Below are positions 1 to 44,639 of a DNA stretch of 64,000 nt, one piece after another. The notes beneath the pieces were generated by a model that was not told the origin of the DNA, did no database searches, and saw nothing but the letters and a program-made list of their open reading frames with translations. Origin of the DNA: Pisolithus tinctorius (taxonomy: Eukaryota; Basidiomycota; Agaricomycetes; Boletales; Pisolithaceae). The stretch is from the NCBI GenBank assembly GCA_024663395.1, contig JANFAH010000010.1:434001-498000 (forward strand), given 5' to 3'. Within the stretch, counting starts at the first letter, position 1. The number at the start of each line of letters is the position of its first letter. Position numbers and translations under genes: made by a program.

Positions 1-1430
1 TCGCATATCGTTTTTCAAGAAAATGATCAACCATAGGTCCAGGTACATCCTCTTTCATATCGCTGCAGCAGCCCCGCTGACCATGGCTTTCATACTCGAG
101 CAGGGCTTTCATGTCATGCGTCGTCGTCGTCTTCTTCCAGGTTCGTCTGCCCTGTGCGCTTTAGATATTAGGCTTACATAATAGCGATGTTCCTCTGACA
201 AGCCAATGACGATTACTGTCGATTGACCCAGCGGTTCTGGGGATGTCCGGGACGGAACGAAAGACAGCAGGTCCTCGCGAACCCGTGCACTTTACTCCCG
301 TTTTGGCTTCCACGAACCGTTGAATTTCGGATCAATATGTGTGGCATTGAATCTCCCTGCCCGTCTTCGCGTGATCGAAAGACATGAAGCTATTGCGTGG
401 GGCGTCGACTTTGTCCCGACGGTGACGACAGCGATATCTGACCAAACAAATGTTTTGGAACCGGGACTCATCACACCCGAATTTCAGGCCGTCGATCGCT
501 GGCCAGGATGCCACAAGATTCCGAAGCCGCCCTTGTGCGGAAACCTTCTTCCCTGCTTTCTGTTATTGCCGATTTACCGCGATCGCCTCGTGTTCTCACT
601 GCCCTGTTCATGCCATTGGTTTCCAGGTGAATTCCACCTACATTTCCCAGTTTTGCGACTCATCTTCTCGGCAGCGTTGTGAATAGCATGGAAGAGCTTA
701 CCTTGCCGTTACACTTACAAGCTGTATGGGGCCTTGATTCCAGTCAAGTTGGTTTGGTATACCTCGCCGCTTTCATACCAGCTCTGGTCTGTCAGTTAAA
801 TCTCATCTGGCTGCACACCTTCTGACTTCTTGTGGCGTCGCCCATCGCCGGTTGGCCTAGTTGACCGAGTAGAAACAGACTACATGACTGTATCGAGCTG
901 GCCGCCGTGTCACGGAACATGTAGGCGTACGCAGCTTCTTATTCTTTCTCAGCGGGTCCAGGCCACCCTCACAATTCAGTTTTCCCAAGCTCTTGAACGT
1001 TCAACGCTAGAGGCTTTGGTTAAATACGACGACCAAGGGATTCGATACACTACATGCAACGAAATCCACAAAAATCGTGACTGTCGCAGAGCGAATGTTA
1101 TTTACTTTTCTTCTTCTTCATGCTTACTTCGTCGACGTATTATGAGACAAACACTATAAATAAAACTGTGAACTGATAAGCACGAGAAAAAATCACCGCG
1201 TTGTGGACTGCCCGGAGGGCGGGTGTATTATCAACAGTGGTCAAGCACAACTTCTACCGCTGGGTAAGTATCGAACAACGCTACCGTATAACGGTTAAGT
1301 GACCCCACGAAACTCGCGTCAACTGTCAGAACAACTGAGCGCAGACATGGTAAAAGGGTACGGCAATCAAAACCATGAGGTCCAGGTCCAGGAGAGTGGG
1401 TAGGATGCTGCAGAAGCGCATCTAATAGGC
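1..1430. repeat. MFS-segment repeat, copy C1
   Basis: Inverted copy of 10926-12355 (positions sum to 12356) and mirror of 43035-44464. It contains an MFS-transporter remnant and the last ~66 codons of the F-box gene. C1, C2 and C4 differ at only one or two sites in about 1.4 kb, whereas C3 is clearly diverged. Confidence 0.9.
335..935 (+). pseudogene. MFS transporter fragment (C1)
   Basis: Parent proteins are 12-helix major facilitator membrane transporters of the vesicular-amine/multidrug type. Visible pieces in order are the central loop (ICVALNLPARL, VIERHEAIAWG), a helix start (RSPRVLTALFM), a well-kept block (LPLHLQAVWGLDSSQ, VGLVYLAAF), the SPIAGW/LVDR motif and ELAAVSRNM. The frame breaks between SPIAG and LVDR by one extra base near 857, a stop follows ELAAVSRNM, and sequence expected between these motifs is missing. 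The N-terminal third is not recognisable. It is a broken captured or duplicated gene piece. Confidence 0.75.
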
Positions 1431-1494
1431 TAGTATGATGAGTCACGAGGATGTCTAGTCGTGCAACCAGAGTAATAGCAAGAGTTGATACCAA
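1231..1494 (-). pseudogene. F-box gene tail fused to unrelated sequence
   Basis: An 87-codon ORF whose last ~66 codons equal the C-terminus of the F-box protein (LLDALLQHPTH ... VVLDHC). Its first ~21 codons come from flanking DNA. The junction at 1430/1431 is the inner edge of repeat C1, so this is a duplication by-product. I see no sign that it is a gene of its own. Confidence 0.6.
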
Positions 1495-1726
1495 ATTACA
1501 GATCGTACGATTTTTGATATGATGCGTGATGGACAGAATGGTAGATTTTGGGAACTAAGAGACCGTTACTCCTGCAAATGATGGACTGGTGGAGGTAGAT
1601 CAAGGAAGGAGCGAACTGCTGACCGCAGCCAATCCACCATCGCCACAGCTACATCACGAATAAAACTTCTCGCTGTAAGAAGAACGAGGCATCCCTCTGA
1701 TGCCAACCATAACCCAAGCGACAGCA

Positions 1727-3425
1727 CTATATATGCCACATTTCGTACCTAAATAGTGTTAGTGTTTGGGTTTGTGTGAATGGGAAATCAACCACGCGTA
1801 CAAAATTGATGATGCCCTCACAAATCTCTCCCCACGGGGTATGCAGCCACATTAACCGTACGGCGGCAAAAGCGGCAGCGGCCCATAGTATGGTGAACAC
1901 TACTGCTAACGCTACGCGCCCATAATCACTCAAATCCATAGAGAAACGTACGACCTCCAAAAGAGTAAGTCGAGTGAACCCAAACACAACTTACAACGGT
2001 AAGAAAACATAACTAACCATCAACCGATACCAGAATTCTTCAAGGAAATCGTCATCCGAAGAAGGGCCTGTGAAGTCCAGATTAATGTAAATCCAACACG
2101 AGTCAGGAAGGTACGAACCGATGTCTGCCTTCCAAATTTTAATATAGGTGCCCTGCCCTTTCAACGCAGATCCGACTGCAATATAGTTCCATGCACCCCG
2201 TTGATAAGTCTGTAGGGATGCCGGCTACCACATCACAGACAAGAAATAGGATATCTCATTATGCCTACCGCTACAGCTTGCATAACGTCACCTAAACCGG
2301 CGTGGTCAACACTTGAACCGAGTAATCTCACTCGAGCACTTACCACCATGTGGGAGAACCTGATACAGATCCTTCGAATCCATGTTCCATACACGGACAT
2401 TTCCGGTGATCGTACCCGAGACCACAGCTCGCCCTCCATGCAGAAATGAAATTGACGAAGGGCATTGTACATCGCACTCTGCCTCATGGTCCCATTTCCA
2501 GATGGCCTTCTTGCTACCTAATTTGTAAAGACAAAGACCATCTTGCAGAGAGTTTACAACAAGGACATTCATGTCATGGTGAATGGCGGAGCTCGCACTG
2601 TTGTGACATTGAGATATACGAATGAGCACGCCCCGTGCACCTGAAAAACTCACATTTGAGAAATTGAGGGGGGCTTGACGTGCCATGTAATGGTCTTGTC
2701 AACGATATTCCACGCCCTGAAAGCCTCGGCATGATCTGAAACGACTATCTCCGCACGGTACTTACACTATACCATGGTTGAGGTAGGACACGATAAGCTT
2801 GTGGCCACCACGAATAAAGTGAAGGGCACGCGGTCGGATACGTGAGTCATTCTCAGTGTATTTGGCCTCGACTTTAGGCGGGGGAGGTAACCTAGTTGCA
2901 GCAGTATATTCATCTGCAGATTTTAACTGGACTGAGAGGCGTAGGATTCTTGGTAGTCACCCACCTTGATTATCACCAGCGGTGATATTAACTTGGTTGC
3001 CGACACCTATTGCCCAGAGATTCGCGCTTGCGTCAATGTCCATACAGAAAACAGGAGCTTTGACACCCAGACGGATAACCTTCTTTTCAAATCCACTCTG
3101 AGGAATTTATCACCGTTGGTTGATTATGATGACTCCGAAAGAGGTTACTGTTACTTACGGGTCTGAAATCACTCATGGATAGCACCGAGCCATCTTCGCA
3201 GCCGCATATCAAGGTCTCTTCTCGAGTGGGATGCCAATGGAGGATATTGATGGCGCTATCGAATACAACGCGAAAGAGAAAAGAGCCTTTGTGCACGCTC
3301 CATATACAGACGGAGTGGTCTGAAGAACCACTCGCGAGATATTTCCCACAGGGAGAAAAGGCAACGGTGTTCATGGAATCGCCATGTTCACCGACTAGGG
3401 TCTTGTGCTCGACATATGCTGGCAT
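1727..3425 (-). CDS. WD40-repeat protein with C-terminal membrane segment
   Basis: Likely a beta-propeller scaffold; no specific partner can be inferred. The start MPAYVEHKTLVGEHG matches the usual N-terminus of an agaricomycete WD40 family. Visible blades include VAFSPCGKYLASGSSD..VCIW (first), VFDSAINILHWHP..TLICGCEDGSV, LHFIRGGHKLIVSYLNHGIV and FLHGGRAVVSGT..GNVRVWN, then YQRGAWNYIAVGSA and GTYIKIWKAD. The first exon ends after FRP at a GTAAGT donor, followed by an exon starting SGFEKKV, and at least four more introns follow. Downstream on the same strand is a hydrophobic segment (VALAVVFTILWAAAAFAAV, ~1930-1870) and a stop at 1727, fitting the C-terminal helix seen in this family. This arm's reading looks intact; later exon edges are uncertain. 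Confidence 0.75.
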
Positions 3426-3643
3426 TGTAGTGGTTTTCCAAAGAACAAAGCCCACGGCAGGCCTGGGAGTTCCATGACACGTCACGTGTTGATTTGCACA
3501 TCCCTGCCATGCTTTTCCCAATCACGGGTGGATTTTTCGTACCCTACCGCGTTTTCACTACGAAAAGTTAAATCACTAAAATTCAAACTGTAAATCACTT
3601 TTGCTGAGTGTCGGAACAGCTGAAGCACAGTGTCTGTCATGGA

Positions 3644-3672
3644 ACTTCAGTGTCATATTGTGACGCTGAAGT
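3644..3672. repeat. 29-nt hairpin
   Basis: ACTTCAG at the left pairs with CTGAAGT at the right, and the inner GTCA pairs with TGAC, leaving one T-G pair and a tiny loop. The mirror copy is at about 40789-40817. It lies between the WD40 gene start and the proline-rich ORF. Confidence 0.5.
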
Positions 3673-3787
3673 GTCCATTTGGCTTACTAAAAAGTGTTAA
3701 GGTCATTGAAATAAAGGTCTCCTCGTCATTGAAAATGGTGTCTATTTCATTCAATATAAATGACAGCTTCAAGTGGAGTGACGTGCG

Positions 3788-4333
3788 CTAGAAATGGTGG
3801 TAATGCATGTGGAATAAATACCCTATGCGTGAGATGTGACTGAACTTGCGCCGCAGTAACGAGGTAGGAAATAGGAGGGAGCTTACCTGTAGTGTGCAGA
3901 TCTGCCGCGGGAGAAGAGGTTTTTCAAGCGTGGTGAACCCCTCGTCGTCCAGCATAAAATCCGCTGTGGTGTCAAGCACAGGGTAGGCTTCCACAAGGGA
4001 ATTCGTCTCGAGCTCTACTAGGGGTGTCAAGGGGAGCGGAAGAGGGTTGGTATGTGGCAGGGATGCGAACCTGTTGGCGGCTCCGGGTGGTTGTTGCGGG
4101 CAACGGGCGGGAGAGTCCAGTGGTGGATCTTTGGCCTGCGAAGATGTCAAGGAAGCGGACGGCGCAGTATAGAAGGGCAGAGGTGGCGATAACGGAGGGG
4201 AATCAAATGGATAATCTCGCAGAGGGCGACGGAACAAAGGACTTGCAGGGGCAGTCAAATTTATATGGTTCGGAGGCACAATGGGCCTAGCAGAGAATGA
4301 GGAGGAACGACTTGAGAGCTCCGAGGTTGACAC
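3788..4333 (-). CDS. Proline/serine-rich hypothetical protein
   Basis: Unrecognised 181-codon ORF. The N-terminal ~100 residues are rich in Pro and Ser (SPLFRRPLRDYPFDSPPLSPP), followed by an acidic patch (TTADFMLDDEGFTTLEKPLL). A GTAAGC donor after TLQ (~3885) suggests the last ~34 codons are intronic and that more exons follow. It lies upstream of the WD40 gene on the same strand. One residue differs between the arms (K/E), which suggests constraint or recency but proves neither. Confidence 0.45.
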   Translation of the reverse strand: MSTSELSSRSSSFSARPIVPPNHINLTAPASPLFRRPLRDYPFDSPPLSPPLPFYTAPSASLTSSQAKDPPLDSPARCPQQPPGAANRFASLPHTNPLPLPLTPLVELETNSLVEAYPVLDTTADFMLDDEGFTTLEKPLLPRQICTLQVSSLLFPTSLLRRKFSHISRIGYLFHMHYHHF

Positions 4334-4339
4334 CTACGT

Positions 4340-5630
4340 TGACAAGCGGGAGCGTTGGATATCGACGAGAGACGCTGCTTGACCCGTGAATATCATTCAA
4401 GCGAGCGGGAGAATAACAACACGGAACACAAACTTTGGCAGAGGCCCGCTTTAAAGGCCTCAGGCGTTCCCCGATGAAGAAGTACGAGTATGAATGACAA
4501 GAGGAGGATAGACTGCAAACGAATCAGTGATTTCGATAATGCAAGCAGTCTGTTTAGAATACCCGCCAGTAGTAGCACCAGCAGTTAGCGCAGCAAGTCT
4601 TCACCGGTCAACGTGACACGAGTTTGATGTTATGCTTGGGGGTGAGGACTGACGAGAAATCATCACTATTAGCTTTGAAAAGTAGGCTTGTGCGAGTTCC
4701 AGACAGACGGAAAACACCAGATGCGCGAGTAAAAAAAATTGTGATCAAAAGGGGAAGGAAGCACACACAATGCCCGTTCCGAGGACAGGAAGTTGGACGA
4801 CCCGAGGCAAGAGCGAGACCCAAAATTGAGGGAAAAACATGATTCCAAAAGCGGGCAAGCCAGACGACGCCAACAGGGAAATCACAGCACGTTTTCGTGT
4901 GTCGTTTTCGTGCGTTTTCGATGCCGTTTTCGATTTGTTTTCGTTGACCGAGTAATTAGGCCGAAAACAGCAGCTTGCTTTGATATCCCGCGTTTTGGCT
5001 TCGTTTTGGCGGTTTCCGAGGTTTGAATAAGTGTAAATAAATGGAAATGATGGCTGGCAGGCTGAGTCAACAGTGGCGCCTGTGAAAACGTCCAAGTGCC
5101 ATTTTCATATCGTTTTCGAGTAATAGTTGCAGTGTTCATCGCAGTCATCTTCATCTTCGAGGGCTTCTAAGTGCCAAAGGGCATTTTCGTCGTCCATAGT
5201 TTATCGCTGACTTAGTATACACGATATCTACTGCAAACTTAGTCTATGCACGTGACCTGACCTACTCCCATTCTCTACGAAGTGCACCAGACGTTGCAGA
5301 GCACGAATGCGCGACTGAACCTGACATGTTTTTTGCCTCCGACATGAAACTCCGATGTGTGACTGCGTGAACAAGGTAAGGAGCGCGTCGTGCCCTACAA
5401 CGTAGGGAACGAGACTGGCACGTAGGAGCCTGACAAACGACGATGAGTGTGAGGGAATTAACGTTGTCCTGGGTTTGAATTTCGGATATTGCCTCGGAAT
5501 ACACCGACACTCAGGCCCAGCTGCTGTACACAGCAGATCGATACGCAGTTACTTTCAGGATCGTCTTACTTAGCCATTATGGACCGTGCTCAATAGTTCC
5601 CGGTAAATTTGGTACAGAAAGTAAGCTAGG
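4340..5630. other. Gene-poor stretch
   Basis: Between two minus-strand ORFs. Short overlapping ORFs are present on both strands, but none has family features or splice-supported continuity. The notable content is the GTTTTCG motif cluster at 4891-4943. The mirror stretch is 38825-40125. Confidence 0.5.
4891..4943 (+). promoter_or_regulatory. Cluster of five GTTTTCG motifs at about one helical turn
   Basis: GTTTTCG begins at 4891, 4904, 4914, 4926 and 4937, that is, at spacings of 13, 10, 12 and 11 bp; a sixth lies at about 5111. Such phasing would place the sites on one face of the helix, as in arrays bound by a transposase or transcription factor. The binding role is inference. The mirror array is 39515-39567. 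Confidence 0.4.
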
Positions 5631-5634
5631 CGAA

Positions 5635-6624
5635 TTACATATCAGGCTTCATAATCGTCAGGGCTTCTTGCTTCCTCTTCGCCCTCCCCCTGTCAGTGAC
5701 CATCGTCTTTCTGAGAACCCAGGACGGTTCTCCATTGTCCAACAACTTGAGGCGATAATCTGACAGTGTGGGATGGTGGGTATCCACCGCCGCTTTGATC
5801 CACCCCGTTTCAGACCTGATCCAGACCTGGAATGCGCCCTCGGTTTGATTGTGGTGAACGTATAGGTCTGCGATTCTCCAAGGATGTTCATAGGCCTCCG
5901 GGACGTCAGGAGGTGAGTCCAACGGTCCCTCTGAAAAGGACCTGTAGAAGGTTACATACTCCTTTTGCTTCCTGATGGCCTTCTGCGTGCGCTTTAATGG
6001 CCAGTTCACGACTGCAGCAGTAGTGGCGGTGGCCGGAATTGGTATCTGAGAATAAGGGTGGTTCGGAAATAACTGAAGGGTTATTGGAATGGCTGAAGCT
6101 ATATTGTCAGACCTAGTTTGGGTTTTGCCAGGTGAAAACGATGAGGTTGCTGGCTTATGAAGGAAGATGGATGGAGCGACTGCAGGGCCGTGTGGCTGCT
6201 GAGCCGGATGGGTGGGAGTAGGCAAATGAGTGGCTGTTGGATTATAATAAGTGTCCCTCGCTGAAGGACAGACCCTAGAAAGCCCTCTCTCCCCCTCCGG
6301 CGGCTGTATATGGTCGATGCCAGCAGGCGGAGCTGACGGTGAAACCAGATTTATTGGTTGGCTTGATCGGGAACTCGGGGGATGGATTTCGGCTCTCGAA
6401 TTATCGAAGGCCATGGACTCGGAAGGCTTCTCTGAAGAAGTCACGGCAGGAGGGTCCTGGCTCAACGTGGTAGGGGCAACATGTTCGACAGCGACGACAG
6501 GAGTGGGGGTGTGGGCAGGATGGCACACACGTTTTGGTTTTGTTGAATGGGCTTTAGCAGGATCCAGCCTGCTGGACTGATGTCGGAGACTAACCGGAAG
6601 TTGATTCTTGAGTTCTGCATCCAT
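5635..6624 (-). CDS. Hypothetical protein, 329 residues
   Basis: Unrecognised. The first ~200 residues are low-complexity and rich in Pro, Ser and Thr. The last ~120 look folded and begin with a basic stretch (LKRTQKAIRKQKEYV), then SFSEGPLDSPPDVPEAYEHPWRIAD, FQVWIRSETGWI and a basic tail (RGRAKRKQEAL). A CTGCAG acceptor lies just before the ATG (MDAELKNQ), so upstream exons near 6830-7170 may belong to the same gene. This arm's frame is intact; the arm 2 copy is broken. Confidence 0.5.
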   Translation of the reverse strand: MDAELKNQLPVSLRHQSSRLDPAKAHSTKPKRVCHPAHTPTPVVAVEHVAPTTLSQDPPAVTSSEKPSESMAFDNSRAEIHPPSSRSSQPINLVSPSAPPAGIDHIQPPEGERGLSRVCPSARDTYYNPTATHLPTPTHPAQQPHGPAVAPSIFLHKPATSSFSPGKTQTRSDNIASAIPITLQLFPNHPYSQIPIPATATTAAVVNWPLKRTQKAIRKQKEYVTFYRSFSEGPLDSPPDVPEAYEHPWRIADLYVHHNQTEGAFQVWIRSETGWIKAAVDTHHPTLSDYRLKLLDNGEPSWVLRKTMVTDRGRAKRKQEALTIMKPDM

Positions 6625-6916
6625 CGCACTGCAGTTGTGTGAACAAATCAGACCTGCGTCGGGAAGAAAGTCTCACCGAGTATTTGAATGTTTGTCAACT
6701 AGATACTTAGACGAATCAGATCGACCTAAGCGACGGTGGGCAACAGAAGTGATATAGCTGCGGCGACGAGGGTTAGTATGAGAAAACCCGAACACGAAAC
6801 TTGCCACTTGCCTTGCTACGCTTGGGGGGTTGAGGTGCAGTTTGGAACGCTGCCGACGAACGGGGAACAGTTGGCGAAAGATAGGGACGTCCTATCAAGA
6901 TGTTAAGGATGAGTTA

Positions 6917-7255
6917 CTAACGGGTAGCATCTAGCCTTACATCGCGCTCGAGAGTGACGCCAGGCCGAGGAGGAATATCTACAAAGAATGTGACGGGCTT
7001 CTCTGGCACTATCATACCTTTACCAGAAAGGAGGCCACGAGGGTATTGAATAATCACAAGCAACGAACGGCGATAGGTAAGGGCGACTAACAAGGAGAGG
7101 CTCCCACTCGAGTTGGAGGCATGGACTTTTTGAACCTGCCGTCGCCTAAACCTGGAGTGGCGAATGAGCATGATGGGGTCACACCATTGATATGGGAGGG
7201 ATAAAGCATATTGACAGAAAGAAGATAGAAGGAAGAGTACTGCCCGTAGTGACCA
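6917..7255 (-). CDS. Possible upstream exon(s) of a hypothetical gene
   Basis: An open frame with RFRRRQVQKVHASNSSG and FFVDIPPRPGVTLERD ends at a GTAAGG donor. A TAG acceptor about 45 bases later precedes a frame containing RPYLSPTVPRSS and PKRSK. The spacing and strand fit exons upstream of the 329-residue ORF, but I could not join the phases cleanly. Function unknown. Confidence 0.3.
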   Translation of the reverse strand, partial: WSLRAVLFLLSSFCQYALSLPYQWCDPIMLIRHSRFRRRQVQKVHASNSSGSLSLLVALTYRRSLLVIIQYPRGLLSGKGMIVPEKPVTFFVDIPPRPGVTLERDVRLDATR

Positions 7256-7259
7256 TTTT

Positions 7260-8010
7260 CTTTCACGATTCTTTCACTGGGGATCCCTTCATAAGTACAT
7301 TATTAGTGCCGCAATAACTTTACCCCGGGCCGGCGGGATAGCGACCAAACATCCCCGCTTCGCTCTAGTTTGTCGTAAACCTCGTCTCCGTCCATGAATT
7401 GGAGTGGTTCTGTGTATTGAAAAAATCAGCCGTAATTCGACGTTTTCGCGGATCTTGTACTGTTCACTGTGATATTAAAGGCAATGTTCTGCCGGTCAAT
7501 GAATGTTCACATGCACACTAGTTACTGAATGTTTTGCAGTGCTCGAAGTCCATCTCACACGTAGATTATCTCAGGTTCATGCACACGTGACTGGCCGACA
7601 AAAAGCACAGCCTCAGCAGTTGCTACGCAAAGAGAATGACTCAAGAAACCGCTGAAAGTTACGTTCAAGTCAACTTCAGTGAAGTTCGCTGACCAGCAGA
7701 ACACTGATTAAAGGTGTCTCTTCGTCCTTACGTGTTCTGCCGGTTCACTGTGTGAGTAATCTCGCCAGCTGCTCCTTGCTGTGTTCTAGCTCAGCAGGGG
7801 TGATAAAGAGCTTTTGTTGGACTTTGTATCAAGGATGTCGTTTGTCGTTATGACCTCCTTTGTTGGGTTGGTGCACTGAAAATTGTGGTCGTATTCCAGG
7901 TCAAATGAAGCTTCAGCAGTGCGATGACGATGCTTAAAGGCAGAATGCGACTCGCATGCAACCTCCCCAGCTGCTCACTCTTATATTCCGACTGTAAGAA
8001 GCCTTAACAG
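7260..8010. other. Intergenic stretch between divergent genes
   Basis: No supported gene. It separates a minus-strand hypothetical gene from the plus-strand RING gene, so it should hold both promoters. I see no clear TATA element. The mirror is 36445-37195. Confidence 0.5.
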
Positions 8011-8014
8011 CTAC

Positions 8015-8705
8015 ATGAATAAAGCACGACCCCCCAACCCTGACAGGATGGATGATGATGAAGGCTTCGTTGTTATTTCTCACGATGCCCTTGAGCCTGC
8101 AGAACCTGGAACAAAGACGATTTCCATCATCGGACCGCTGGTTCATCTCCCATTTTATTATGATTTACAACTCAGGTCCGCTTGCACATGCGAGGTTCAG
8201 ATGGATCACAACACGGCGTTGCGCAGGGAGCTCGCTACTACTAGAAACAATTTTTGGGAGGCTATCCAGAAGGTAATGGATGTATTCTGCCGATCGGGTA
8301 TGAAGCCACTGATGGATTGTTTTAAGATATTTGCTACGGCTGAACGTGACTTGTCCTGTGCCATATGCCTTGGCCTGCTTTGCCAGCCACTCACGTGAGT
8401 CATTGTCGACCCGTGGACCAGTCGCACTAACGCAACGCTATAACCATAGGCTACCTGACTGCGGACACACCTACTGTTGTTCATGCCTGGAGAGTTTCTT
8501 CGCAAAGCAGGTGGAAAGACGTCCATTTTCACAGCGCACTTGTCCCACATGCCGCAACCATGTCACAAGTGCGCCCGTACCAGCCTTTACTCTGCATGGA
8601 CTGTTGGATGGGATGAGTGCTGTTGCTCGGGAAACGCGAGGGGTGCTTGCAGCAAGTCGAGTCCAATTGGTGCCTGTGTTGGATTCATTCATCGGTGATA
8701 CTTGA
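8015..8705 (+). CDS. RING-finger (C3HC4) protein, likely E3 ubiquitin ligase
   Basis: Two exons, 8015-8394 and 8450-8705, joined by a 55-bp GTGAGT...CATAG intron inside the RING domain, encoding 211 residues. The zinc ligands follow the classic pattern: C115-X2-C118 (CAIC), then C131-X-H133-X2-C136-X2-C139 (CGHTYCCSC), then C158-X2-C161 (CPTC). RING proteins of this form bring an E2 enzyme to substrates for ubiquitin transfer. The N-terminal ~110 residues are acidic then helical, with no other domain I recognise. The start at MNKARPPNP is the first in-frame Met; MDDDEGF twelve residues later is an alternative. Both arm copies keep every ligand. Confidence 0.85.
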
Positions 8706-9079
8706 AGAGGATACGAAGGGATGCTTGCTGGGAACGCCTACTATCAATCTTGTGTATTGCAGATAGTATATGAATGAGTTGGTTATCCGTGAACATCTTA
8801 CTCGATGGGTATTGTATGGATGAAAACTAGGTATGAATGCGCATTAGGACCACCCCCCGCAGAATACCTCCATACAATTCTCTTCCCCTTGCGCCTTCAC
8901 CGCTTCCTAGCAACCCGTTACCAACCTCGTCTGACCGCAAATTACCCGAACGGTCCTTAGAGCTAACCTCGTAGCAGAAACATGAATTCCGACCGTCAAA
9001 CGTCTGTGGGTTCGGGATGTGTAGTAGAGGGTCGAGCTTGAGAGGGAGCCAGTTGAGGTGCAATACGGCCGCGGAAGAC

Positions 9080-9415
9080 CTAGAGGCAACTGGTGCGGTA
9101 TCTGCGTAGGTTGCTTGTTGCTTTCGAATGCTCTCTGATCTCTTCGGTGTGGTCTCGCGATTGCACCTCAGCGAAGTCGCAAGCTAGGTTTATGCCGAGC
9201 CCGGACGGCATTCTCCGAGTTACCATAACCTTGGCCTCCGGTCTGGCAATGCGCGTAAATGCTAGCATAACAAAGCATGGGTGAGTTCCCGTGATTTGTG
9301 GCAGGCGTCGGGATAATTCTCCGCCCCGCCACTCCTCCTTTGTTTTGAGATGGTTAAAAGAGAGGAAACTACAGGATATTGACGCGTTGGTCTCTGGTAA
9401 TTTACCGGTAACCAA
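9080..9415 (-). CDS. Short ORF upstream of and divergent from the F-box gene
   Basis: A 111-codon open frame (MVTGKLPET ... RYRTSCL) kept open in both arms with three substitutions. No domain is recognised. Its start overlaps the hairpin at 9380-9422. It may be a shadow of regulatory DNA. Confidence 0.25.
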   Translation of the reverse strand: MVTGKLPETNASISCSFLSFNHLKTKEEWRGGELSRRLPQITGTHPCFVMLAFTRIARPEAKVMVTRRMPSGLGINLACDFAEVQSRDHTEEIREHSKATSNLRRYRTSCL

Positions 9416-9422
9416 CGCGTCA
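9380..9422. repeat. 43-nt cruciform-capable inverted repeat upstream of the F-box gene
   Basis: TGACGCGTTGGT at the left pairs perfectly with ACCAACGCGTCA at the right (12 bp). An inner GGTAA/TTACC stem is flanked by a three-base mismatch, and the loop is one base. It lies 72 bases before the F-box ORF. The mirror is 35033-35075. Confidence 0.75.
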
Positions 9423-9493
9423 GTATGATAATCCCGTCCTTATTCCTGTTTGCGGCAACCGCGATTCCTGGTTAGTGTGGAATTCTGATATTC

Positions 9494-18655: not shown

Positions 18656-18658
18656 AAG

Positions 18659-18875: not shown

Positions 18876-18915
18876 GGACCCCACCCTCACCACTCTTCTC
18901 CGTCTCTACTACACA

Positions 18916-34961: not shown

Positions 34962-35032
34962 GAATATCAGAATTCCACACTAACCAGGAATCGCGGTTGC
35001 CACAAACAGGATTAAGGACGGGATTGTCATAC

Positions 35033-35075
35033 TGACGCGTTGGTAACTGGTAAATTACCAGAGACCAACGCGTCA
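35033..35075. repeat. Mirror 43-nt cruciform-capable inverted repeat
   Basis: The same outer 12-bp stem as at 9380-9422. Here the inner stem is a perfect TGGTAA/TTACCA, whereas the arm 1 copy has one mismatch. Confidence 0.75.
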
Positions 35076-35375
35076 ATATCCTGTAGTTTCCTCTCTTTTA
35101 ACCACCTCAAAACAAAGGAGGAGTGGCAGGGCGGAGAATTATCCCGACGCCTGCCACAAATCACGGGAACTCACCCATTCTTTGTTATGCTAGCATTCAC
35201 GCGCATTGCCAGACCGGAGGCCAAGGTTATGGTAACTCGGAGAATGCCGTCCGGGCTCGGCATAAACCTAGCTTGCGACTTTGCTGAGGTGCAATCGCGA
35301 GACCACACCGAAGAGATCAGAGAGCATTCGAAAGCAACAGGCAACCTACGCAGATACCGCACCAGTTGCCTCTAG
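35040..35375 (+). CDS. Short divergent ORF, arm 2 copy
   Basis: Mirror of 9080-9415, also 111 codons and open. Function unknown. Confidence 0.25.
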   Translation: MVTGKLPETNASISCSFLSFNHLKTKEEWQGGELSRRLPQITGTHPFFVMLAFTRIARPEAKVMVTRRMPSGLGINLACDFAEVQSRDHTEEIREHSKATGNLRRYRTSCL

Positions 35376-35749
35376 ATCTTCCACGGCCGTATTACACCTC
35401 AGCTGGCTCCCTCTCAAGCTCGACCCTCTACTACACATCCCGAACCCACAGACGTTTGACGGTCGGAATTCATGTTTCTGCTATGAGGTTAGCTCTAAGG
35501 ACCGTTCGGGTAATTTGCGGTCAGACAAGGTTGGTAACGGGTCGCTAGGAAGCGGTGAAGGCGCAAGGAGAAGAGAATTGTATGGAGGTATTCTGCGGGG
35601 GGTGGTCCTATTGTGCATTCACATCTAGTTTTCATCCATACAATATCCATCGAGTAAGATATTCACAGATAACCAACTCATTCATATACTATCTGCAACA
35701 CACAAGATTGACAGTAGGCGTTCCCAGCAAGCATCCCTTCGTATCCTCT

Positions 35750-36440
35750 TCAAGTATCACCGATGAATGAATCCAACACAGGCACCAATTGGACTCGACT
35801 TGCTGCAAGCACCCCTCGCGTTTCCCGAGCAACAGCACTCATCCCATCCAACAGTCCATGCAGAGTAAAGGCTGGTACGGGCGCACTTGTGACATGGTTG
35901 CGGCATGTGGGACAAGTGCGCTGTGAAAATGGACGTCTTTCTACCTGCTTTGCGAAGAAACTCTCCAGGCATGAACAACAGTAGGTGTGTCCGCAGTCAG
36001 GTAGCCTATGGTTATAGCGTTGCGTTAGTGCGACTGGTCCACGGATCGATAATGACTCACGTGAGTGGTTGGCAAAGCAGGCCAAGGCATATGGCACAGG
36101 ACAAGTCACGTTCAGCCGTAGCAAATATCTTAAAACAATCCATCAGTGGCTTCATACTCGATCGGCAGAATACATCCATTACCTTCTGGATAGCCTCCCA
36201 AAAATTGTTTCTAGTAGTAGCAAGCTCCCTGCGCAACGCCGTGTTGTGATCCATCTGAATCTCGCATGTGCAAGCGGACCTGAGTTGTAAATCATAATAA
36301 AATGGGAGACGAACCAGCGGCCCGACGATGGAAATCGTCTTTGTTCCAGGTTCTGCAGGCTCAAGGGCATCGTGAGAAATAACAACGAAGCCTTCATCAT
36401 CGTCCATCCTGTCAGGGTTGGGGGGTCGTGCTTTATTCAT
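35750..36440 (-). CDS. RING-finger (C3HC4) protein, arm 2 copy
   Basis: Mirror of 8015-8705 with the same two exons (36440 to about 36061, and 36005-35750) and all eight zinc ligands. There are only a handful of amino-acid changes in exon 1 (for example IVGPLVRLP for IIGPLVHLP and CEIQ for CEVQ). Both copies look intact, so this is one of the better-preserved pairs in the palindrome. Confidence 0.83.
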
Positions 36441-37199
36441 GTAGCTGTTAAGGCTTCTTACAGTCGGAATATAAGAGTGAGCAGCTGGGGAGGTTGCATG
36501 TGAGTCGCATTCTGCTTTTAAGCATCGTCATCGCACTGCTGAAGCTTCATTTGACCTGGAATACGACCACAATTTTCAGTGCACCAACCCAACAAAGGAG
36601 GTCATAACGACAAACGACATCCTTAATACAAAGTCCAACAAAAGCTCTTTATCACCCCTGTTGAGCTAGAACACAGCAAGGAGCAGCTGGCGAGATTACT
36701 CACACAGTGAACCGGCAGAACACGTAAGGACGAGGAGACACCTTAGATCAGTGTTCTGCTGGTCAGCGAACTTCACTGAAGTTGACTTGAACGTAACTTT
36801 CAGCGGTTTCTTGAGTCATTCTCTTTGCGTAGCAACTGCTGAGGCTGTGCTTTTTGTCGGCCAGTCACGTGTGCATGAGCCTGAGATAATCTACGTGTGA
36901 GATGGACTTCGAGGCACTGCAAAACATTCAGTAACTAGTGTGAACGTTCACTGACTGGCAGAACATTGCCTTTAATATCACAGTGAACAGTACAAGATCC
37001 GCGAAAACGTCGAATTACGGCTGATTTTTTCAATACACAGAACCACTCCGATTCATGGACGGAGACGAGGTTTACGACAAACTAACTTGAGCGAAGCGGG
37101 GATGTTTGGTCGCTATCCCGCCGGCCCGGGGTAAAGTTATTGCGGCACTAATAATGTACTTATGAAGGGATCCCCAGTGAAAGAATCGTGAAAGAAAAT

Positions 37200-37537
37200 G
37201 GTCACTACGGGCAGTGCTCTTCCTTCTGTCTTCTTTCTGTCAATATGCTTTATCCCTCCCATATCAATGGTGTGACCCCATCATGCTCATTCGCCACTCC
37301 AGGTTTAGGCGACGGCAGGTTCAAAAAGTCCATGCCTCCAACTCGAGTGGGAGCCTCTCCTTGTTAGTCGCCCTTACCTATCGCCGTTCGTTGCTTGTGA
37401 TTATTCAATACCCTCGTGGCCTCCTTTCTGGTAAAGGTATGATAGTGCCAGAGAAGCCCGTCACATTCTTTGTAGATATTCCTCCTCGGCCTGGCGTCAC
37501 TCTCGAGCGCGATGTAAGGCTAGATGCTACCCGTTAG
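37200..37537 (+). CDS. Possible upstream exon(s), arm 2 copy
   Basis: Mirror of the minus-strand frame at 6917-7255, with the same 84 C-terminal codons and the same donor. Any downstream gene would be the frameshifted copy at 37830-38821. Confidence 0.3.
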
Positions 37538-37829
37538 TAACTCATCCTTAACATCTTGATAGGACGTCCCTATCTTTCGCCAACTGTTCCCCGTTCGTCG
37601 GCAGCGTTCCAAACTGTACCTCAACCCCCCAAGCGTAGCAAGGCAAGTGGCAAGTTTCGTGTTCGGGTCTTCTCATACTAACCCTCGTCACCGCAGCTAT
37701 ATCACTTCTGTTACCCACCGTCGCTTAGGTCGATCTAATTCGTCTAAGTATCTAGTTGACAAACATTCAAATATTCGGTGAGACTTTCTTCCCGACGCAG
37801 GTCTGATTTGTTCACACAACTGCAGTGCG

Positions 37830-38821
37830 ATGGATGCAGAACTCAAGAATCAACTTCCAGTTAGTCTCCAACGTCAGTCCAGCAGGCTGGATCCTGCTAA
37901 AACCCATTCAACAAAACCAAAACGTGTGTGCCATCCTGCCCACACCCCCACTCCTGTCGTCGCTGTCGAACATGTTGCCCCTACCACGTTGAGCCAGGAC
38001 CCTCCTGCCGTGACTTCTTCAGAGAAGCCTTCCGAGTCCATGGCCTTCGATAATTCGAGAGCCGAAATCCATCCCCCGAGTTCCCGATCAAGCCAACCAA
38101 TAAATCTGGTTTCACCATCAGCTCCGCCTGCTGGCATCGACCATATACAGTTGCCGGAGGGGGAGAGAAGGCTTTCTAGGGTCTGTCCTTCGGCGAGGGA
38201 CACTTATTATAATCCAACAGCCACTCATTTGCCTACTCCCACCCATCCGGCTCAGCAGCCACACGGCCCTGCAGTCGCTCCATCCATCTTCCTTCATAAG
38301 CCAGCAACCTCATCGTTTTCGCCTGGCAAAACCCAAACTAGGCCTGACAATATAGCTTCAGCCATTCCAATAACCCCTCAGTTATTTCCGAACCACCCTT
38401 ATTCTCAGATACCAATTCCGGCCACCGCCACTACTGCTGCAGTCGTGAACTGGCCATTAAAGCGCACGCAGAAGGCCATCAGGAAAGCAAAAGGAGTATG
38501 TAACCTTCTACAGGTCCTTTTCAGAGGGACCGTTGGACTCACCTCCTGACGTCCGGAGGCCTACTGAACATCCTTGGAGAATTGCAGACCTATATGTTCA
38601 CCACAATCAAACCGAGGCGCGCATTCCAGGTCTGGATCAGGTCTGAAACGGGGTGGATCAAAGCGGCGGTGGATACCCACCATCCCACACTGTCAGATTA
38701 TCGCCTCAAGTTGTTGGACAATGGAGAACCGTCCTGGGTTCTCAGAAAGACGATGGTCACTGACAGGGGGAGGGCGAAGAGGAAGCAAGAAGCCCTGACG
38801 ATTATGAAGCCTGATATGTAA
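37830..38821 (+). pseudogene. Frameshifted copy of the 329-residue hypothetical protein
   Basis: Mirror of 5635-6624. An extra A (AGGAAAGC for AGGAAGC, near 38483) shifts the frame after LKRTQKAIRK, giving a stop at 38549. Further single-base differences follow around 38554, 38565 and 38617. The final ~60 codons are again readable from 38582. Confidence 0.65.
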
Positions 38822-39514
38822 TTCGCCTAGCTTACTTTCTGTACAAAATTTACTGGGAACATATGAGCACGGTCCATAATGGCTAAGTAAGACGATCCTG
38901 AAGTAACTGCGTATCGATCTGCTGTGTACAGCAGCTGGGCCTGAGTGTCGGTGTATTCCGAGGCAATATCCGAAATTCAAACCCAGGACAACGTTAATTC
39001 CCTCACACTCATCGTCGCTTTGTCAGGCTCCTTACATGCCAGTCTCGTTCCCTACGTTGTAGGGCACGACGCGCTCCTTACCTTGTTCACTGCAGTCACA
39101 CATCGGAGTTTCATGTCGGAGGCAAAAAACATGTCAGGTTCAGTCGCGCATTCGTGCTCTGCAACGTCTGGTGCACTTCGTAGAGAATGGGAGTAGGTCA
39201 GGTCACGTGCATAGACTAAGTTTGCAGTAGATATCGTGTATACTAAGTCAGCGATAAACTATGGACGACGAAAATGCCCTTTGGCACTTAGAAGCCCTCG
39301 AAGATGAAGATGACTGCGATGAACACTGCAACTATTACTCGAAAACGATATGAAAATGGCACTTGGACGTTTTCACAGGCGCCACTGTTGACTCAGCCTG
39401 CCAGCCATCATTTCCATTTATTTACACTTATTCAAACCTCGGAAACCGCCAAAACGAAGCCAAAACGCGGGATATCAAAGCAAGCTGCTGTTTTCGGCCT
39501 AATTACTCGGTCAA

Positions 39515-39567
39515 CGAAAACAAATCGAAAACGGCATCGAAAACGCACGAAAACGACACACGAAAAC
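39515..39567 (-). promoter_or_regulatory. Mirror cluster of five GTTTTCG motifs
   Basis: Reverse-strand copy of the array at 4891-4943, appearing as CGAAAAC on the plus strand, with all five units and their spacing kept. Confidence 0.4.
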
Positions 39568-40127
39568 GTGCTGTGATTTCCCTGTTGGCGTCGTCTGGCT
39601 TGCCCGCTTTTGGAATCATGTTTTTCCCCTCAATTTTGGGTCTCGCTCTTGCCTCGGGTCGTCCGACTTCCTGTCCTCGGAACGGGCATTGTGTGTGCTT
39701 CCTTCCCCTTTTGATCACGAATTTTTTTACTCGCGCATCTGGTGTTTGCCGTCTGTCTGGAACTCGGCACAAGCCTACTTTTCAAAGCTAATAGTGATGA
39801 TTTCTCGTCAGTCCTCACCCCCAAGTATGAACATCAAACTCGTGTCACGTTGACCGGTGAAGACTTGCTGCGCTAACTGCTGGTGCTACTACTGGCGGGT
39901 ATTCTAAACAGACTGCTTGCATCATCGAAATCACTGATTCGTTTGCAGTCTATCCTCCTCTTGTCATTCATACTCGTACTTCTTCATCGGGGAACGCCTG
40001 AGGCCTTTAAAGCGGGCCTCTGCCAAAGTTTGTGTTCCGTGTTGTTATTCTCCCGCTCGCTTGAATGATATTCACGGGTCAAGCAGCGTCTCTCGTCGAT
40101 ATCCAACGCTCCCGCTTGTCAACGTAG

Positions 40128-40673
40128 GTGTCAACCTCGGAGCTCTCAAGTCGTTCCTCCTCATTCTCTGCTAGGCCCATTGTGCCTCCGAACCATATAA
40201 ATTTGACTGCCCCTGCAAGTCCTTTGTTCCGTCGCCCTCTGCGAGATTATCCATTTGATTCCCCTCCGTTATCGCCACCTCTGCCCTTCTATACTGCGCC
40301 GTCCGCTTCCTTGACATCTTCGCAGGCCGAAGATCCACCACTGGACTCTCCCGCCCGTTGCCCGCAACAACCACCCGGAGCCGCCAACAGGTTCGCATCC
40401 CTGCCACATACCAACCCTCTTCCGCTCCCCTTGACACCCCTAGTAGAGCTCGAGACGAATTCCCTTGTGGAAGCCTACCCTGTGCTTGACACCACAGCGG
40501 ATTTTATGCTGGACGACGAGGGGTTCACCACGCTTGAAAAACCTCTTCTCCCGCGGCAGATCTGCACACTACAGGTAAGCTCCCTCCTATTTCCTACCTC
40601 GTTACTGCGGCGCAAGTTCAGTCACATCTCACGCATAGGGTATTTATTCCACATGCATTACCACCATTTCTAG
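40128..40673 (+). CDS. Proline/serine-rich hypothetical protein (arm 2 copy)
   Basis: Mirror of 3788-4333, 181 codons with one substitution (SSQAEDPP here, SSQAKDPP in arm 1). The reading frame is open. Function unknown. Confidence 0.45.
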   Translation: MSTSELSSRSSSFSARPIVPPNHINLTAPASPLFRRPLRDYPFDSPPLSPPLPFYTAPSASLTSSQAEDPPLDSPARCPQQPPGAANRFASLPHTNPLPLPLTPLVELETNSLVEAYPVLDTTADFMLDDEGFTTLEKPLLPRQICTLQVSSLLFPTSLLRRKFSHISRIGYLFHMHYHHF

Positions 40674-41035
40674 CGCACGTCACTCCACTTGAAGCTGTCA
40701 TTTATATTGAATGAAATAGACACCATTTTCAATGACGAGGAGACCTTTATTTCAATGACCTTAACACTTTTTAGTAAGCCAAATGGACACTTCAGCGTCA
40801 CAATATGACACTGAAGTTCCATGACAGACACTGTGCTTCAGCTGTTCCGACACTCAGCAAAAGTGATTTACAGTTTGAATTTTAGTGATTTAACTTTTCG
40901 TAGTGAAAACGCGGTAGGGTACGAAAAATCCACCCGTGATTGGGAAAAGCATGGCAGGGATGTGCAAATCAACACGTGACGTGTCATGGAACTCCCAGGC
41001 CTGCCGTGGGCTTTGTTCTTTGGAAAACCACTACA

Positions 41036-42738
41036 ATGCCAGCATATGTCGAGCACAAGACCCTAGTCGGTGAACATGGCGATTCCGTGAACACCGTTGC
41101 CTTTTCTCCCTGTGGGAAATATCTCGCGAGTGGTTCTTCAGACCACTCCGTCTGTATATGGAGCGTGCACAAAGGCTCTTTTCTCTTTCGCGTTGTATTC
41201 GATAGCGCCATCAATATCCTCCATTGGCATCCCACTCGAGAAGAGACCTTGATATGCGGCTGCGAAGATGGCTCGGTGCTATCCATGAGTGATTTCAGAC
41301 CCGTAAGTAACAGTAACCTCTTTCGGAGTCATCATAATCAACCAACGGTGATAAATTCCTCAGAGTGGATTTGAAAAGAAGGTTATCCGTCTGGGTGTCA
41401 AAGCTCCTGTTTTCTGTATGGACATTGACGCAAGCGCGAATCTCTGGGCAATAGGTGTCGGCAACCAAGTTAATATCACCGCTGGTGATAATCAAGGTGG
41501 GTGACTACCAAGAATCCTACGCCTCTCAGTCCAGTTAAAATCTGCAGATGAATATACTGCTGCAACTAGGTTACCTCCCCCGCCTAAAGTCGAGGCCAAA
41601 TACACTGAGAATGACTCACGTATCCGACCGCGTGCCCTTCACTTTATTCGTGGTGGCCACAAGCTTATCGTGTCCTACCTCAACCATGGTATAGTGTAAG
41701 TACCGTGCGGAGATAGTCGTTTCAGATCATGCCGAGGCTTTCAGGGCGTGGAATATCGTTGACAAGACCATTACATGGCATGTCAAGCCCCCCTCAATTT
41801 CTCAAATGTGAGTTTTTCAGGTGCACGGGGCGTGCTCATTTCGTATATCTCAATGTCACAACAGTGCGAGCTCCGCCATTCACCATGACATGAATGTCCT
41901 TGTTGTAAACATCTCTGCAAGATGGTCTTTGTCTTTACAAATTAGGTAGCAAGAAGGCCATCTGGAAATGGGACCATGAGGCAGAGTGCGATGTACAATG
42001 CCCTTCGTCAATTTCATTTCTGCATGGAGGGCGAGCTGTGGTCTCGGGTACGATCACCGGAAATGTCCGTGTATGGAACATGGATTCGAAGGATCTGTAT
42101 CAGGTTCTCCCACATGGTGGTAAGTGCTCGAGTGAGATTACTCGGTTCAAGTGTTGACCACGCCGGTTTAGGTGACGTTATGCAAGCTGTAGCGGTAGGC
42201 ATAATGAGATATCCTATTTCTTGTCTGTGATGTGGTAGCCGGCATCCCTACAGACTTATCAACGGGGTGCATGGAACTATATTGCAGTCGGATCTGCGTT
42301 GAAAGGGCAGGGCACCTATATTAAAATTTGGAAGGCAGACATCGGTTCGTACCTTCCTGACTCAGTGTTGGATGTACATTAATCTGGACTTCACAGGCCC
42401 TTCTTCGGATGTACGATTTCCTTGAAGAATTCTGGTATCGGTTGATGGTTAGTTATGTTTTCTTACCGTTGTAAGTTGTGTTTGGGTTCACTCGACTTAC
42501 TCTTTTGGAGGTCGTACGTTTCTCTATGGATTTGAGTGATTATGGGCGCGTAGCGTTAGCAGTAGTGTTCACCATACTATGGGCCGCTGCCGCTTTTGCC
42601 GCCGTACGGTTAATGTGGCTGCATACCCCGTGGGGAGAGATTTGTGAGGGCATCATCAATTTTGTACGCGTGGTTGATTTCCCATTCACACAAACCCAAA
42701 CACTAACACTATTTAGGTACGAAATGTGGCATATATAG
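41036..42738 (+). pseudogene. WD40-repeat protein, frameshifted copy
   Basis: Mirror copy of the gene at 1727-3425. The first two exons (41036-41302, and from 41364) read well. Relative to arm 1 it has single-base insertions near 41840 (CATTTCG for CATTCG), 41911 (AACATCTC for AACTCTC), 42365 and 42401, which destroy the later blades. The C-terminal hydrophobic segment at 42478-42738 is unchanged. If the insertions are sequencing errors, the gene is intact. Confidence 0.7.
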
Positions 42739-42970
42739 TGCTGTCGCTTGGGTTATGGTTGGCATCAGAGGGATGCCTCGTTCTTCTTACAGCGAGAAGT
42801 TTTATTCGTGATGTAGCTGTGGCGATGGTGGATTGGCTGCGGTCAGCAGTTCGCTCCTTCCTTGATCTACCTCCACCAGTCCATCATTTGCAGGAGTAAC
42901 GGTCTCTTAGTTCCCAAAATCTACCATTCTGTCCATCACGCATCATATCAAAAATCGTACGATCTGTAAT

Positions 42971-43234
42971 TTGGTATCAACTCTTGCTATTACTCTGGTT
43001 GCACGACTAGACATCCTCGTGACTCATCATACTAGCCTATTAGATGCGCTTCTGCAGCATCCTACCCACTCTCCTGGACCTGGACCTCATGGTTTTGATT
43101 GCCGTACCCTTTTACCATGTCTGCGCTCAGTTGTTCTGACAGTTGACGCGAGTTTCGTGGGGTCACTTAACCGTTATACGGTAGCGTTGTTCGATACTTA
43201 CCCAGCGGTAGAAGTTGTGCTTGACCACTGTTGA
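42971..43234 (+). pseudogene. F-box gene tail fused to unrelated sequence (arm 2)
   Basis: Mirror of 1231-1494 with an identical 87-codon translation. The junction lies at 43034/43035. Confidence 0.6.
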
Positions 43235-44639
43235 TAATACACCCGCCCTCCGGGCAGTCCACAACGCGGTGATTTTTTCTCGTGCTTATCAGTTCACAGT
43301 TTTATTTATAGTGTTTGTCTCATAATACGTCGACGAAGTAAGCATGAAGAAGAAGAAAAGTAAATAACATTCGCTCTGCGACAGTCACGATTTTTGTGGA
43401 TTTCGTTGCATGTAGTGTATCGAATCCCTTGGTCGTCGTATTTAACCAAAGCCTCTAGCGTTGAACGTTCAAGAGCTTGGGAAAACTGAATTGTGAGGGT
43501 AGCCTGGACCCGCTGAGAAAGAATAAGAAGCTGCGTACGCCTACATGTTCCGTGACACGGCGGCCAGCTCGATACAGTCATGTAGTCTGTTTCTACTCGG
43601 TCAACTAGGCCAACCGGCGATGGGCGACGCCACAAGAAGTCAGAAGGTGTGCAGCCAGATGAGATTTAACTGACAGACCAGAGCTGGTATGAAAGCGGCG
43701 AGGTATACCAAACCAACTTGACTGGAATCAAGGCCCCATACAGCTTGTAAGTGTAACGGCAAGGTAAGCTCTTCCATGCTATTCACAACGCTGCCGAGAA
43801 GATGAGTCGCAAAACTGGGAAATGTAGGTGGAATTCACCTGGAAACCAATGGCATGAACAGGGCAGTGAGAACACGAGGCGATCGCGGTAAATCGGCAAT
43901 AACAGAAAGCAGGGAAGAAGGTTTCCGCACAAGGGCGGCTTCGGAATCTTGTGGCATCCTGGCCAGCGATCGACGGCCTGAAATTCGGGTGTGATGAGTC
44001 CCGGTTCCAAAACATTTGTTTGGTCAGATATCGCTGTCGTCACCGTCGGGACAAAGTCGACGCCCCACGCAATAGCTTCATGTCTTTCGATCACGCGAAG
44101 ACGGGCAGGGAGATTCAATGCCACACATATTGATCCGAAATTCAACGGTTCGTGGAAGCCAAAACGGGAGTAAAGTGCACGGGTTCGCGAGGACCTGCTG
44201 TCTTTCGTTCCGTCCCGGACATCCCCAGAACCGCTGGGTCAATCGACAGTAATCGTCATTGGCTTGTCAGAGGAACATCGCTATTATGTAAGCCTAATAT
44301 CTAAAGCGCACAGGGCAGACGAACCTGGAAGAAGACGACGACGACGCATGACATGAAAGCCCTGCTCGAGTATGAAAGCCATGGTCAGCGGGGCTGCTGC
44401 AGCGATATGAAAGAGGATGTACCTGGACCTATGGTTGATCATTTTCTTGAAAAACGATATGCGATTTCGCCCGGACGAACGATTCCGAAACTGACGCCTT
44501 TGTGTTCGAGCGAAGACATGATGACATCAGCGAATTCACGCCACTCGGGTGTCGCTAGTCGAAGCTGTCACTATTAGGTAGGAGGCTCTTATCATGTCCT
44601 CAAACTCCGCCAACGATTTTCAGCAGAAAGGTATTGATG
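43035..44639. repeat. MFS-segment repeat, copy C4
   Basis: Direct copy of 10926-12531, 1 base shorter (a deletion in the GATGACCATC string), and mirror of C1. Homology stops at 44639, 46 bases into the ATPase pseudogene sequence, where unrelated DNA begins. Confidence 0.9.
43530..44130 (-). pseudogene. MFS transporter fragment (C4)
   Basis: Mirror of 335-935 and near-identical to the C2 copy. It carries the same lesions and has no independent reading frame. Confidence 0.75.

What the first reader, a model, noticed from the sequence alone, without database searches (positions are those of the whole stretch)
1..44464. A 44-kb imperfect palindrome with 19.9-kb arms
Nearly every gene in 1-19916 recurs in mirror order on the opposite strand in 24694-44464. 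The arms are about 98% alike and carry separate substitutions and indels, so this is not a simple fold-back read chimera. Palindromes of this size are unusual in fungal chromosomes and could arise from inverted duplication around a transposase-made break.
Basis: partly seen in the sequence, partly recalled or inferred. Interest (0 to 1): 0.9.

Follow-up and report, generated by a model that had tools for sequence, protein, structure and literature searches.

The report
Giant palindromic transposon in a mushroom
In the tree-root mushroom Pisolithus tinctorius a 44-kb palindrome proves to be the inside of a 64-kb CACTA-type element, complete at one place in the assembly and recognised by its matching ends at three more, so it has likely jumped as one piece carrying two mirrored sets of other genes; no transposon of this enzyme class and size turned up in our literature searches.

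Summary
The palindrome is real but is only part of something larger. The window is C10:434001-498000 of a Pisolithus tinctorius assembly. The arms run on upstream: 26.3 and 26.1 kb around a 4,777-bp centre. Around them lies a 64,435-bp unit (window -10596..53838) with 550-bp terminal inverted repeats (531 of 550 bases alike), CACTG...CAGTG ends and TCT on both sides. Joining the outer flanks with one TCT rebuilds an intact 1,859-bp repeat without a gap (99.9%). Three more copies, each split over contigs that end inside the palindrome, have matching 3-bp duplications (TCT, TGG, TTT), and their joined flanks are contiguous elsewhere in the genome. The centre encodes a tnp2-type (PF02992) transposase. 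Seven related elements cross the left apex and all stop 5 bp past the right apex, so the right arm likely arose as a fold-back copy of the left half. Arm comparisons fit later exchange between arms. Verdict: a giant palindromic variant of a known kind (CACTA/EnSpm). Not shown: transposition itself, single reads across the apex, continuity of the three split copies, and whether the transposase works (the window copy has one base more than seven other copies).

The parts
1..53838 (.). In-window part of the 64,435-bp element; the whole runs -10596..53838 = C10:423404-487838
   Evidence: 550-bp TIRs, CACTG/CAGTG ends, TCT on both sides
1..19916 (+). Left arm (in-window part; begins at -6354, or about -7755 by comparison with other copies)
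19917..24693 (+). Non-repeated centre (loop) with the transposase gene
24694..50820 (-). Right arm, inverted copy of the left arm
24694..24698 (.). Right apex joint; 5 bases (GGTAT) shared by the joint and the non-palindromic relatives
   Evidence: 7 of 7 relatives match up to 24698 and stop; sequence
20146..24426 (+). Predicted tnp2-type transposase gene with introns; approximate limits; one base more near 21879 than in seven other copies
   Evidence: PF02992 in frame 21052-21942, 31.8 bits, cut-off 28.6; frames and approximate splicing; extra base
50919..53838 (+). Right end region of the element, shared with 3.5-kb elements elsewhere
53289..53838 (-). Right terminal inverted repeat; partner at -10596..-10047
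   Evidence: 531 of 550 bases alike
53839..53841 (.). Target-site duplication TCT, right copy; left copy at -10599..-10597
53839..54666 (+). Right half of the repeat (TE-2) into which the element is inserted; left half at -11630..-10597
   Evidence: Joined halves equal an intact copy over 1,859 bp, two mismatches, no gap
9476..11122 (+). Carried gene: F-box-like protein; mirror-image frame 33369-34961 (-)
   Evidence: PF12937, 44.1 bits, cut-off 24.3; mirror frame; relatives in other Pisolithus species
2309..3521 (-). Carried gene: WD40-repeat exons
   Evidence: PF00400, 43.5 bits, cut-off 27, in 3090-3521; weak matches in 2309-2698
8313..8702 (+). Carried gene: weak RING-finger-like exon
   Evidence: PF00097, 21.2 bits, cut-off 21; other RING models below their cut-offs
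5638..6672 (-). Carried gene: protein of unknown function with relatives in other Pisolithus species
   Evidence: no Pfam match; 12 related proteins
10919..12531 (+). Repeat X inside the arm; other copies -174..1438 (-), 32083-33536 (-), 43027-44639 (+)

Best explanation
The palindrome is the inside of a 64.4-kb element with CACTA-type ends, complete at C10 and recognised by matching ends and 3-bp target duplications at three more places, that has likely transposed as one piece, is predicted to use the tnp2-type transposase encoded in its non-repeated centre, and likely gained its right half as a fold-back copy of its left half. Shown: 550-bp terminal inverted repeats, CACTG/CAGTG ends, TCT on both sides at C10, a rebuilt target repeat, three further flank pairs with equal 3-bp ends that are contiguous elsewhere, a transposase domain in the centre, and seven relatives that cross the left apex and all stop at the right apex. 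Inferred: (1) in a non-palindromic ancestor a strand that had reached 24698 snapped back by about 5 complementary bases onto 19912-19916 and was extended, copying the left half out to its end, with the 4.8-kb centre as the loop; (2) the left end later received a right-type end, so the element again has one end of each type; (3) the palindromic form spread by transposition; (4) arms exchange sequence with each other and with other copies, and the centre may flip between them.
For: TIR pair -10596..-10047 / 53838..53289, 531 of 550 alike. Ends CACTGGAA/TTCCAGTG with TCT on both sides; flanks joined with one TCT equal an intact repeat over 1,859 bp with two mismatches and no gap. Seven outer ends read on other contigs all stop at CCAGTG; three left flanks (C75, C83, C69) and right flanks (C20, C33, C18 = C23) pair by TCT, TGG, TTT. 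The three joined flanks: 40 rows, of which 33 span a join (16, 4 and 13) and 7 are the flanks themselves. 14 samples at the same offsets 62 and 152 kb into seven contigs show no collinear match. PF02992 above cut-off in the centre. In 7 of 7 relatives the match crosses 19916/19917 and ends at 24698. Arm mosaic. A 3.5-kb element with the same ends sits in the C16 relative with a 3-base overlap.
Against: The three further copies are not assembled through; their left and right ends are paired by 3-bp ends and rebuilt repeats only, and the targets are repeats, so no allelic empty site was shown. The centre lies in opposite orientations on C75 and C20, a pair by its flanks. The inner right arm of C10 is almost identical to the other copies, so reads of other copies may have entered the C10 contig there. 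The window copy's transposase frame has one base more than 7 of 7 other copies. PF02992 scores are modest (31.8; 29.4 for the stitched reading). Genome searches score only the best candidates. The 5-bp snap-back rests on alignment ends; the relatives' own sequence beyond 24698 was not read.
Confidence: 0.85

Rival explanations
1. Assembly artefact: the palindrome is a false join of two haplotypes or a fold-back chimera.
For: Seven other contigs with the centre, and C23 with an arm, end inside the palindrome, the reads came from 10- or 30-kb libraries if this is the published assembly (PMC10066745), and the inner C10 right arm equals other copies.
Against: The two C10 flanks are halves of one repeat copy with the same TCT. 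Both outer C10 arms share 182 sites that differ from two other copies. The right-apex joint recurs on several contigs.
Confidence: 0.06
2. A segmental duplication or ectopic recombination product that only happens to lie between copies of a small CACTA element (composite of passive repeats), not moved by a transposase.
For: 3.5-kb elements with the same ends are common, and the left end of the giant looks like part of one.
Against: Four sites, each with ends at the outermost TIR bases and equal 3-bp flanks that rebuild an uninterrupted repeat; no shared collinear sequence at the sampled distances outside.
Confidence: 0.08
3. The palindrome is the older state and the non-palindromic relatives lost their right arm.
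For: Both forms share centre and left-arm pieces; no outgroup was available to root the direction.
Against: Seven relatives would have had to lose the arm at the same base (24698), or share one loss, and four of them have related end sequences on the far side (C7, C3, C4, C12).
Confidence: 0.1

Closest known systems
CACTA / EnSpm (CMC) DNA transposons
   Same: CAC..GTG-type ends, 3-bp target duplication, tnp2-type transposase with the expected D, D, C(2)C, H(3)H, E pattern (description of the group from PMC12730594, passages).
   Different: 64 kb with 550-bp TIRs, palindromic inside, carries unrelated genes twice. A review-20-kb CACTA families in a red alga significantly enlarged (PMC6431247, passages).
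Plavaka (fungal relatives of EnSpm)
   Same: Related transposase group, fungal, 2-3-bp duplications (PMC12730594).
   Different: Plavaka ends are TGT..ACA or CATCA..TGATG; here CACTG..CAGTG.
Starship giant fungal transposons
   Same: Tens of kb, carry other genes, variable size; reported also in the basidiomycete Tremella fuciformis, 41,942-605,797 bp (PMC13066641, passages).
   Different: Starships are recognised by a tyrosine-recombinase captain gene; here the centre has a tnp2-type domain and the element has long TIRs.
Mu killer (maize inverted duplication of MuDR)
   Same: Transposon changed by partial inverted duplication (PMC3440606, start of abstract).
   Different: There the transposase gene itself is duplicated and a hairpin RNA is proposed to silence; here the transposase lies in the unduplicated loop and the palindromic form has multiplied.
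Large chromosomal palindromes with arm-to-arm gene conversion (such as those of Y chromosomes; recalled)
   Same: Long arms, short spacer, arm pattern that fits conversion.
   Different: Here the palindrome has transposon ends and target duplications and is present at several sites.

Membership tests
CACTA/EnSpm | Ends 5'-CAC..GTG-3' (classically CACTA/G) | tested here: met
   CACTG..CAGTG at C10; 7 of 7 other outer ends read stop at CCAGTG
CACTA/EnSpm | 3-bp target-site duplication | tested here: met
   TCT at C10 with rebuilt target; TCT, TGG, TTT for three flank pairs, joined flanks contiguous elsewhere
CACTA/EnSpm | tnp2-type transposase | tested here: met
   PF02992 31.8 bits, cut-off 28.6; stitched reading 29.4
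[quoted passage not shown]
   Motifs seen in that order near 21688, 21980, 23496 and 23562; catalytic assignment is by eye, and the gene model is approximate
CACTA/EnSpm | The transposase cuts at these ends | not testable with these tools
   Needs an excision assay
Plavaka | Ends TGT..ACA or CATCA..TGATG | tested here: not met
   CACTG..CAGTG; definition from PMC12730594
Starship | Tyrosine-recombinase captain gene | tested here: inconclusive
   None among the Pfam families shown for the frames scanned, but one search showed 25 of 34 families, exons were scanned singly, and the part left of the window was not scanned directly
Palindrome kept by arm-to-arm conversion | Arms of one copy more alike than to the same arm in other copies | tested here: inconclusive
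   True for the outer 13-22 kb (182 sites shared by both C10 arms against 34 and 9), not for the inner 13 kb (7 against 176 and 0); mixed reads not excluded

The most novel reading that the evidence does not exclude
A giant CACTA transposon turned itself into a 64-kb palindrome and still jumps: its transposase sits in an invertible loop that flips between the arms by recombination, and the two mirrored gene sets repair each other by gene conversion. With its 58-96-kb non-palindromic relatives it would be a family of gene-carrying giant transposons in mushrooms, parallel to the Starships but built on a different enzyme.
Probability: 0.35. Interest if true: 0.88.

Novelty: new variant of a known kind. 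Interest (0 to 1): 0.78.

Why it matters
Cut-and-paste transposons of the DDE type are mostly a few kb to some 20 kb (the larger figure from PMC6431247, the rest recalled). A 64-kb CACTA element with insertion signatures at four sites would show that this class too can carry tens of kb of other genes. The palindrome is a rare case in which un-duplicated relatives, the new joint and the later spread are visible in one genome, so the origin of large palindromes, arm-to-arm conversion and loop inversion become directly testable. It also explains why seven contigs of 0.2-1.3 Mb in this assembly end at the same sequence.

Tried and rejected
Rejected: polyploidy as the reason for many copies (an RNA-polymerase domain comes as three pairs of contigs plus one extra; sampled flanks at 62 and 152 kb are not shared). 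Centromere-like inverted repeat and terminal palindrome: considered because contigs end there, set aside because of the element ends and target duplications; one copy lies about 236 kb from a TTAGGG array on C69, which says nothing for the others. Known RNA genes: none at Rfam's gathering score and no tRNA in the window.

Led nowhere: one clean transposase model in all copies (chains were found for the window and for L001, L002, L004 and L005 with differing exons, none for L008, and L003, L006, L007 were not tried in the right orientation); the alignment of centres, where the same three copies were in the wrong orientation, so its counts are not used (the one-base check was redone in both orientations); repeated words in the TIR (A-rich words only); the empty allele of C10 in the other nucleus and the exact ends of the non-palindromic giants (genome tools did not complete).

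Literature: ten searches. Their listings, and the passages read, showed no CACTA element of this size and no palindromic giant transposon; preprints and most subscription journals are not held.

Full report
1. What the window is. The window is C10:434001-498000 of a 92.5-Mb assembly in 221 contigs. The F-box protein from it matches Pisolithus tinctorius records, and the longest contig listed for the best hit, 1,797,810 bases, equals the length of C10. An RNA-polymerase domain comes as three pairs of contigs plus one extra on C182, as expected if two nuclei are kept apart. A paper on the genus describes FALCON assemblies of PacBio reads from 10- or 30-kb libraries (PMC10066745, section 14 read; other passages). 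That this is the same assembly is inferred.

2. The observation. The palindrome is there and larger: with DNA left of the window the arms are -6354..19916 and 24694..50820, with 236 substitutions in 26,090 aligned bases and 40 indel events.

3. It has transposon ends. The arms lie between two inverted copies of a 550-bp sequence, -10596..-10047 and 53838..53289, alike at 531 of 550 bases. The outermost bases are CACTGGAA and TTCCAGTG, with TCT on both sides. Left flank plus right flank with one TCT equals another repeat copy at -21281..-19423 over all 1,859 bp, two mismatches, no gap. So the 64,435 bp between them interrupt that repeat as one insertion.

4. More copies. The 3.5-kb core of the centre is full length at 15 places: 8 at 99-100% (C10 among them) and 7 at 94-96%. 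The seven close ones besides C10 lie on C33, C20, C18, C183, C69, C83 and C75, contigs that end inside the palindrome (coordinates, contig lengths); C23 carries an arm and also ends there. Their outer flanks match either the left or the right side of the C10 element. Seven outer ends were read (C33, C20, C18, C23, C75, C83, C69); C183 ends inside the element. All seven stop at CCAGTG. Left flanks end in TCT (C75), TGG (C83) and TTT (C69), and right flanks begin with TCT (C20), TGG (C33) and TTT (C18 and C23, identical over 100 bp). Joined accordingly, all three pairs are contiguous elsewhere: of 40 rows 33 span a join (16, 4, 13; 79-100% identity) and 7 are the flanks themselves. The targets are repeats, so these are paralogous empty sites, not alleles. 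Fourteen 2-kb samples at equal offsets (62 and 152 kb) in seven contigs show only scattered repeat matches. I conclude at least four insertions: C10, C75/C20, C83/C33 and C69/C18 (with C23). The last three are not assembled through.

5. Machinery and cargo. The centre has a frame with Transposase_21 (PF02992, 31.8 bits, cut-off 28.6; stitched reading 29.4). A chain of exons from 20146 can be read; its boundaries, the 3' end above all, are approximate. The window copy has one base more at about 21879 than 7 of 7 other close copies, which shifts the frame there; whether this is real or a sequencing error is open. Two related proteins were found, in P. microcarpus and P. marmoratus, among the candidates scored. 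The arms carry an F-box-like protein, WD40 exons, a weak RING-like exon and an unknown protein with relatives in other Pisolithus species. Most single frames scanned have no Pfam match; of the 47 arm frames scanned together, 25 of 34 matching families were shown.

6. How the palindrome arose. Seven more distant elements (C1, C3, C4, C7, C12, C14, C16) hold the centre. In 7 of 7 the match crosses the left apex 19916/19917 (in C4 in a separate piece, in C1 by 67 bases), and in 7 of 7 it ends at 24698, five bases past the right apex. Arm pieces in several of them lie in the order left arm, then centre. So left arm plus centre is the plain order and the joint at 24693/24694 is new. The simplest model is a snap-back: a strand ending in GGTAT pairs with ATACC at 19912-19916 (sequence), leaves the 4.8-kb centre as a loop and copies the left half outwards. 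In agreement, the right end of the palindromic element is organised like the left end of the plain ones and its left end like their right end (coordinates). That the left end was replaced later is inference. Four plain elements (C7, C3, C4, C12) have related end sequences 58 to 96 kb apart; their exact ends and flanks were not read. Small 3.5-kb elements with the same ends recur; one interrupts the C16 relative with a 3-base overlap, as expected for a 3-bp duplication.

7. Exchange between arms. In 2-kb steps from the apex, the two C10 arms differ by 0.0-0.65% from 14 kb outwards but by 1.65-5.2% from other copies there. From 4 to 14 kb the C10 right arm is within 0-1.0% of the other copies while the left arm differs from them by 1.4-2.95%. 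Against C33 and C75: inner 13 kb, 176 sites where only the left C10 arm differs, 0 only right, 7 both; outer 13-22 kb, 34, 9 and 182. This fits conversion between arms outside and between copies inside; reads of other copies in the C10 contig could give the inner pattern.

8. Orientation of the centre. Relative to the flank types the centre lies as in C10 on C33, C83 and C20, and the other way round on C75, C69, C18 and C183. Two of three pairs agree; C75 and C20 disagree. Either the loop flips or the assembler, with reads shorter than the arms, chose freely.

9. Against known systems. Ends and duplication meet the EnSpm description in PMC12730594 (passages); Plavaka ends are not met. A review names 16-20-kb CACTA families as significantly enlarged (PMC6431247, passages). 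Starships in a basidiomycete are reported in PMC13066641 (passages). I file it as a CACTA/EnSpm element of unusual size and architecture: a new variant of a known kind.

Noticed in passing
61279-64000: Tandem array of an 80-bp unit, 34.2 copies in the window and cut by its right edge.
   Followed up: no
C7:1725778-1795545; C3:3797773-3856094; C4:3832599-3928191; C12:838599-900315: Non-palindromic relatives of the element, 58-96 kb between related end sequences; the same centre occurs also on C1, C14 and C16. Exact ends not read.
   Followed up: partly
C16:459105-462662; also C27, C24, C2, C18, C1 and others: 3.5-kb elements with the same ends as the giant, up to about 100% alike; likely internal-deletion derivatives. 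The C16 one sits in the centre of a giant relative with a 3-base overlap.
   Followed up: partly
C35:442677-471228 and C123:79184-84291; C19:912098-917600: Older partial copies of the palindromic element (arm pieces 94-96%); C35 and C123 share a break at the point equal to window 8553.
   Followed up: no
C10:407033-411848 and C10:511736-516497 (window -26967..-22152 and 77736..82497): A 4.8-kb direct repeat, 84% alike, on both sides of the element.
   Followed up: no
15489-15801 and mirror 28815-29127: Two tandem 158-bp units in each arm.
   Followed up: no
P0016 (Pisolithus marmoratus): A predicted protein that joins a tryptophan-synthase alpha domain to a tnp2 transposase domain; may be an annotation fusion.
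   Followed up: no
C69:61-84 and C43:586684-586713: The only places in the genome with four TTAGGG units in a row; C69 starts with one.
   Followed up: no
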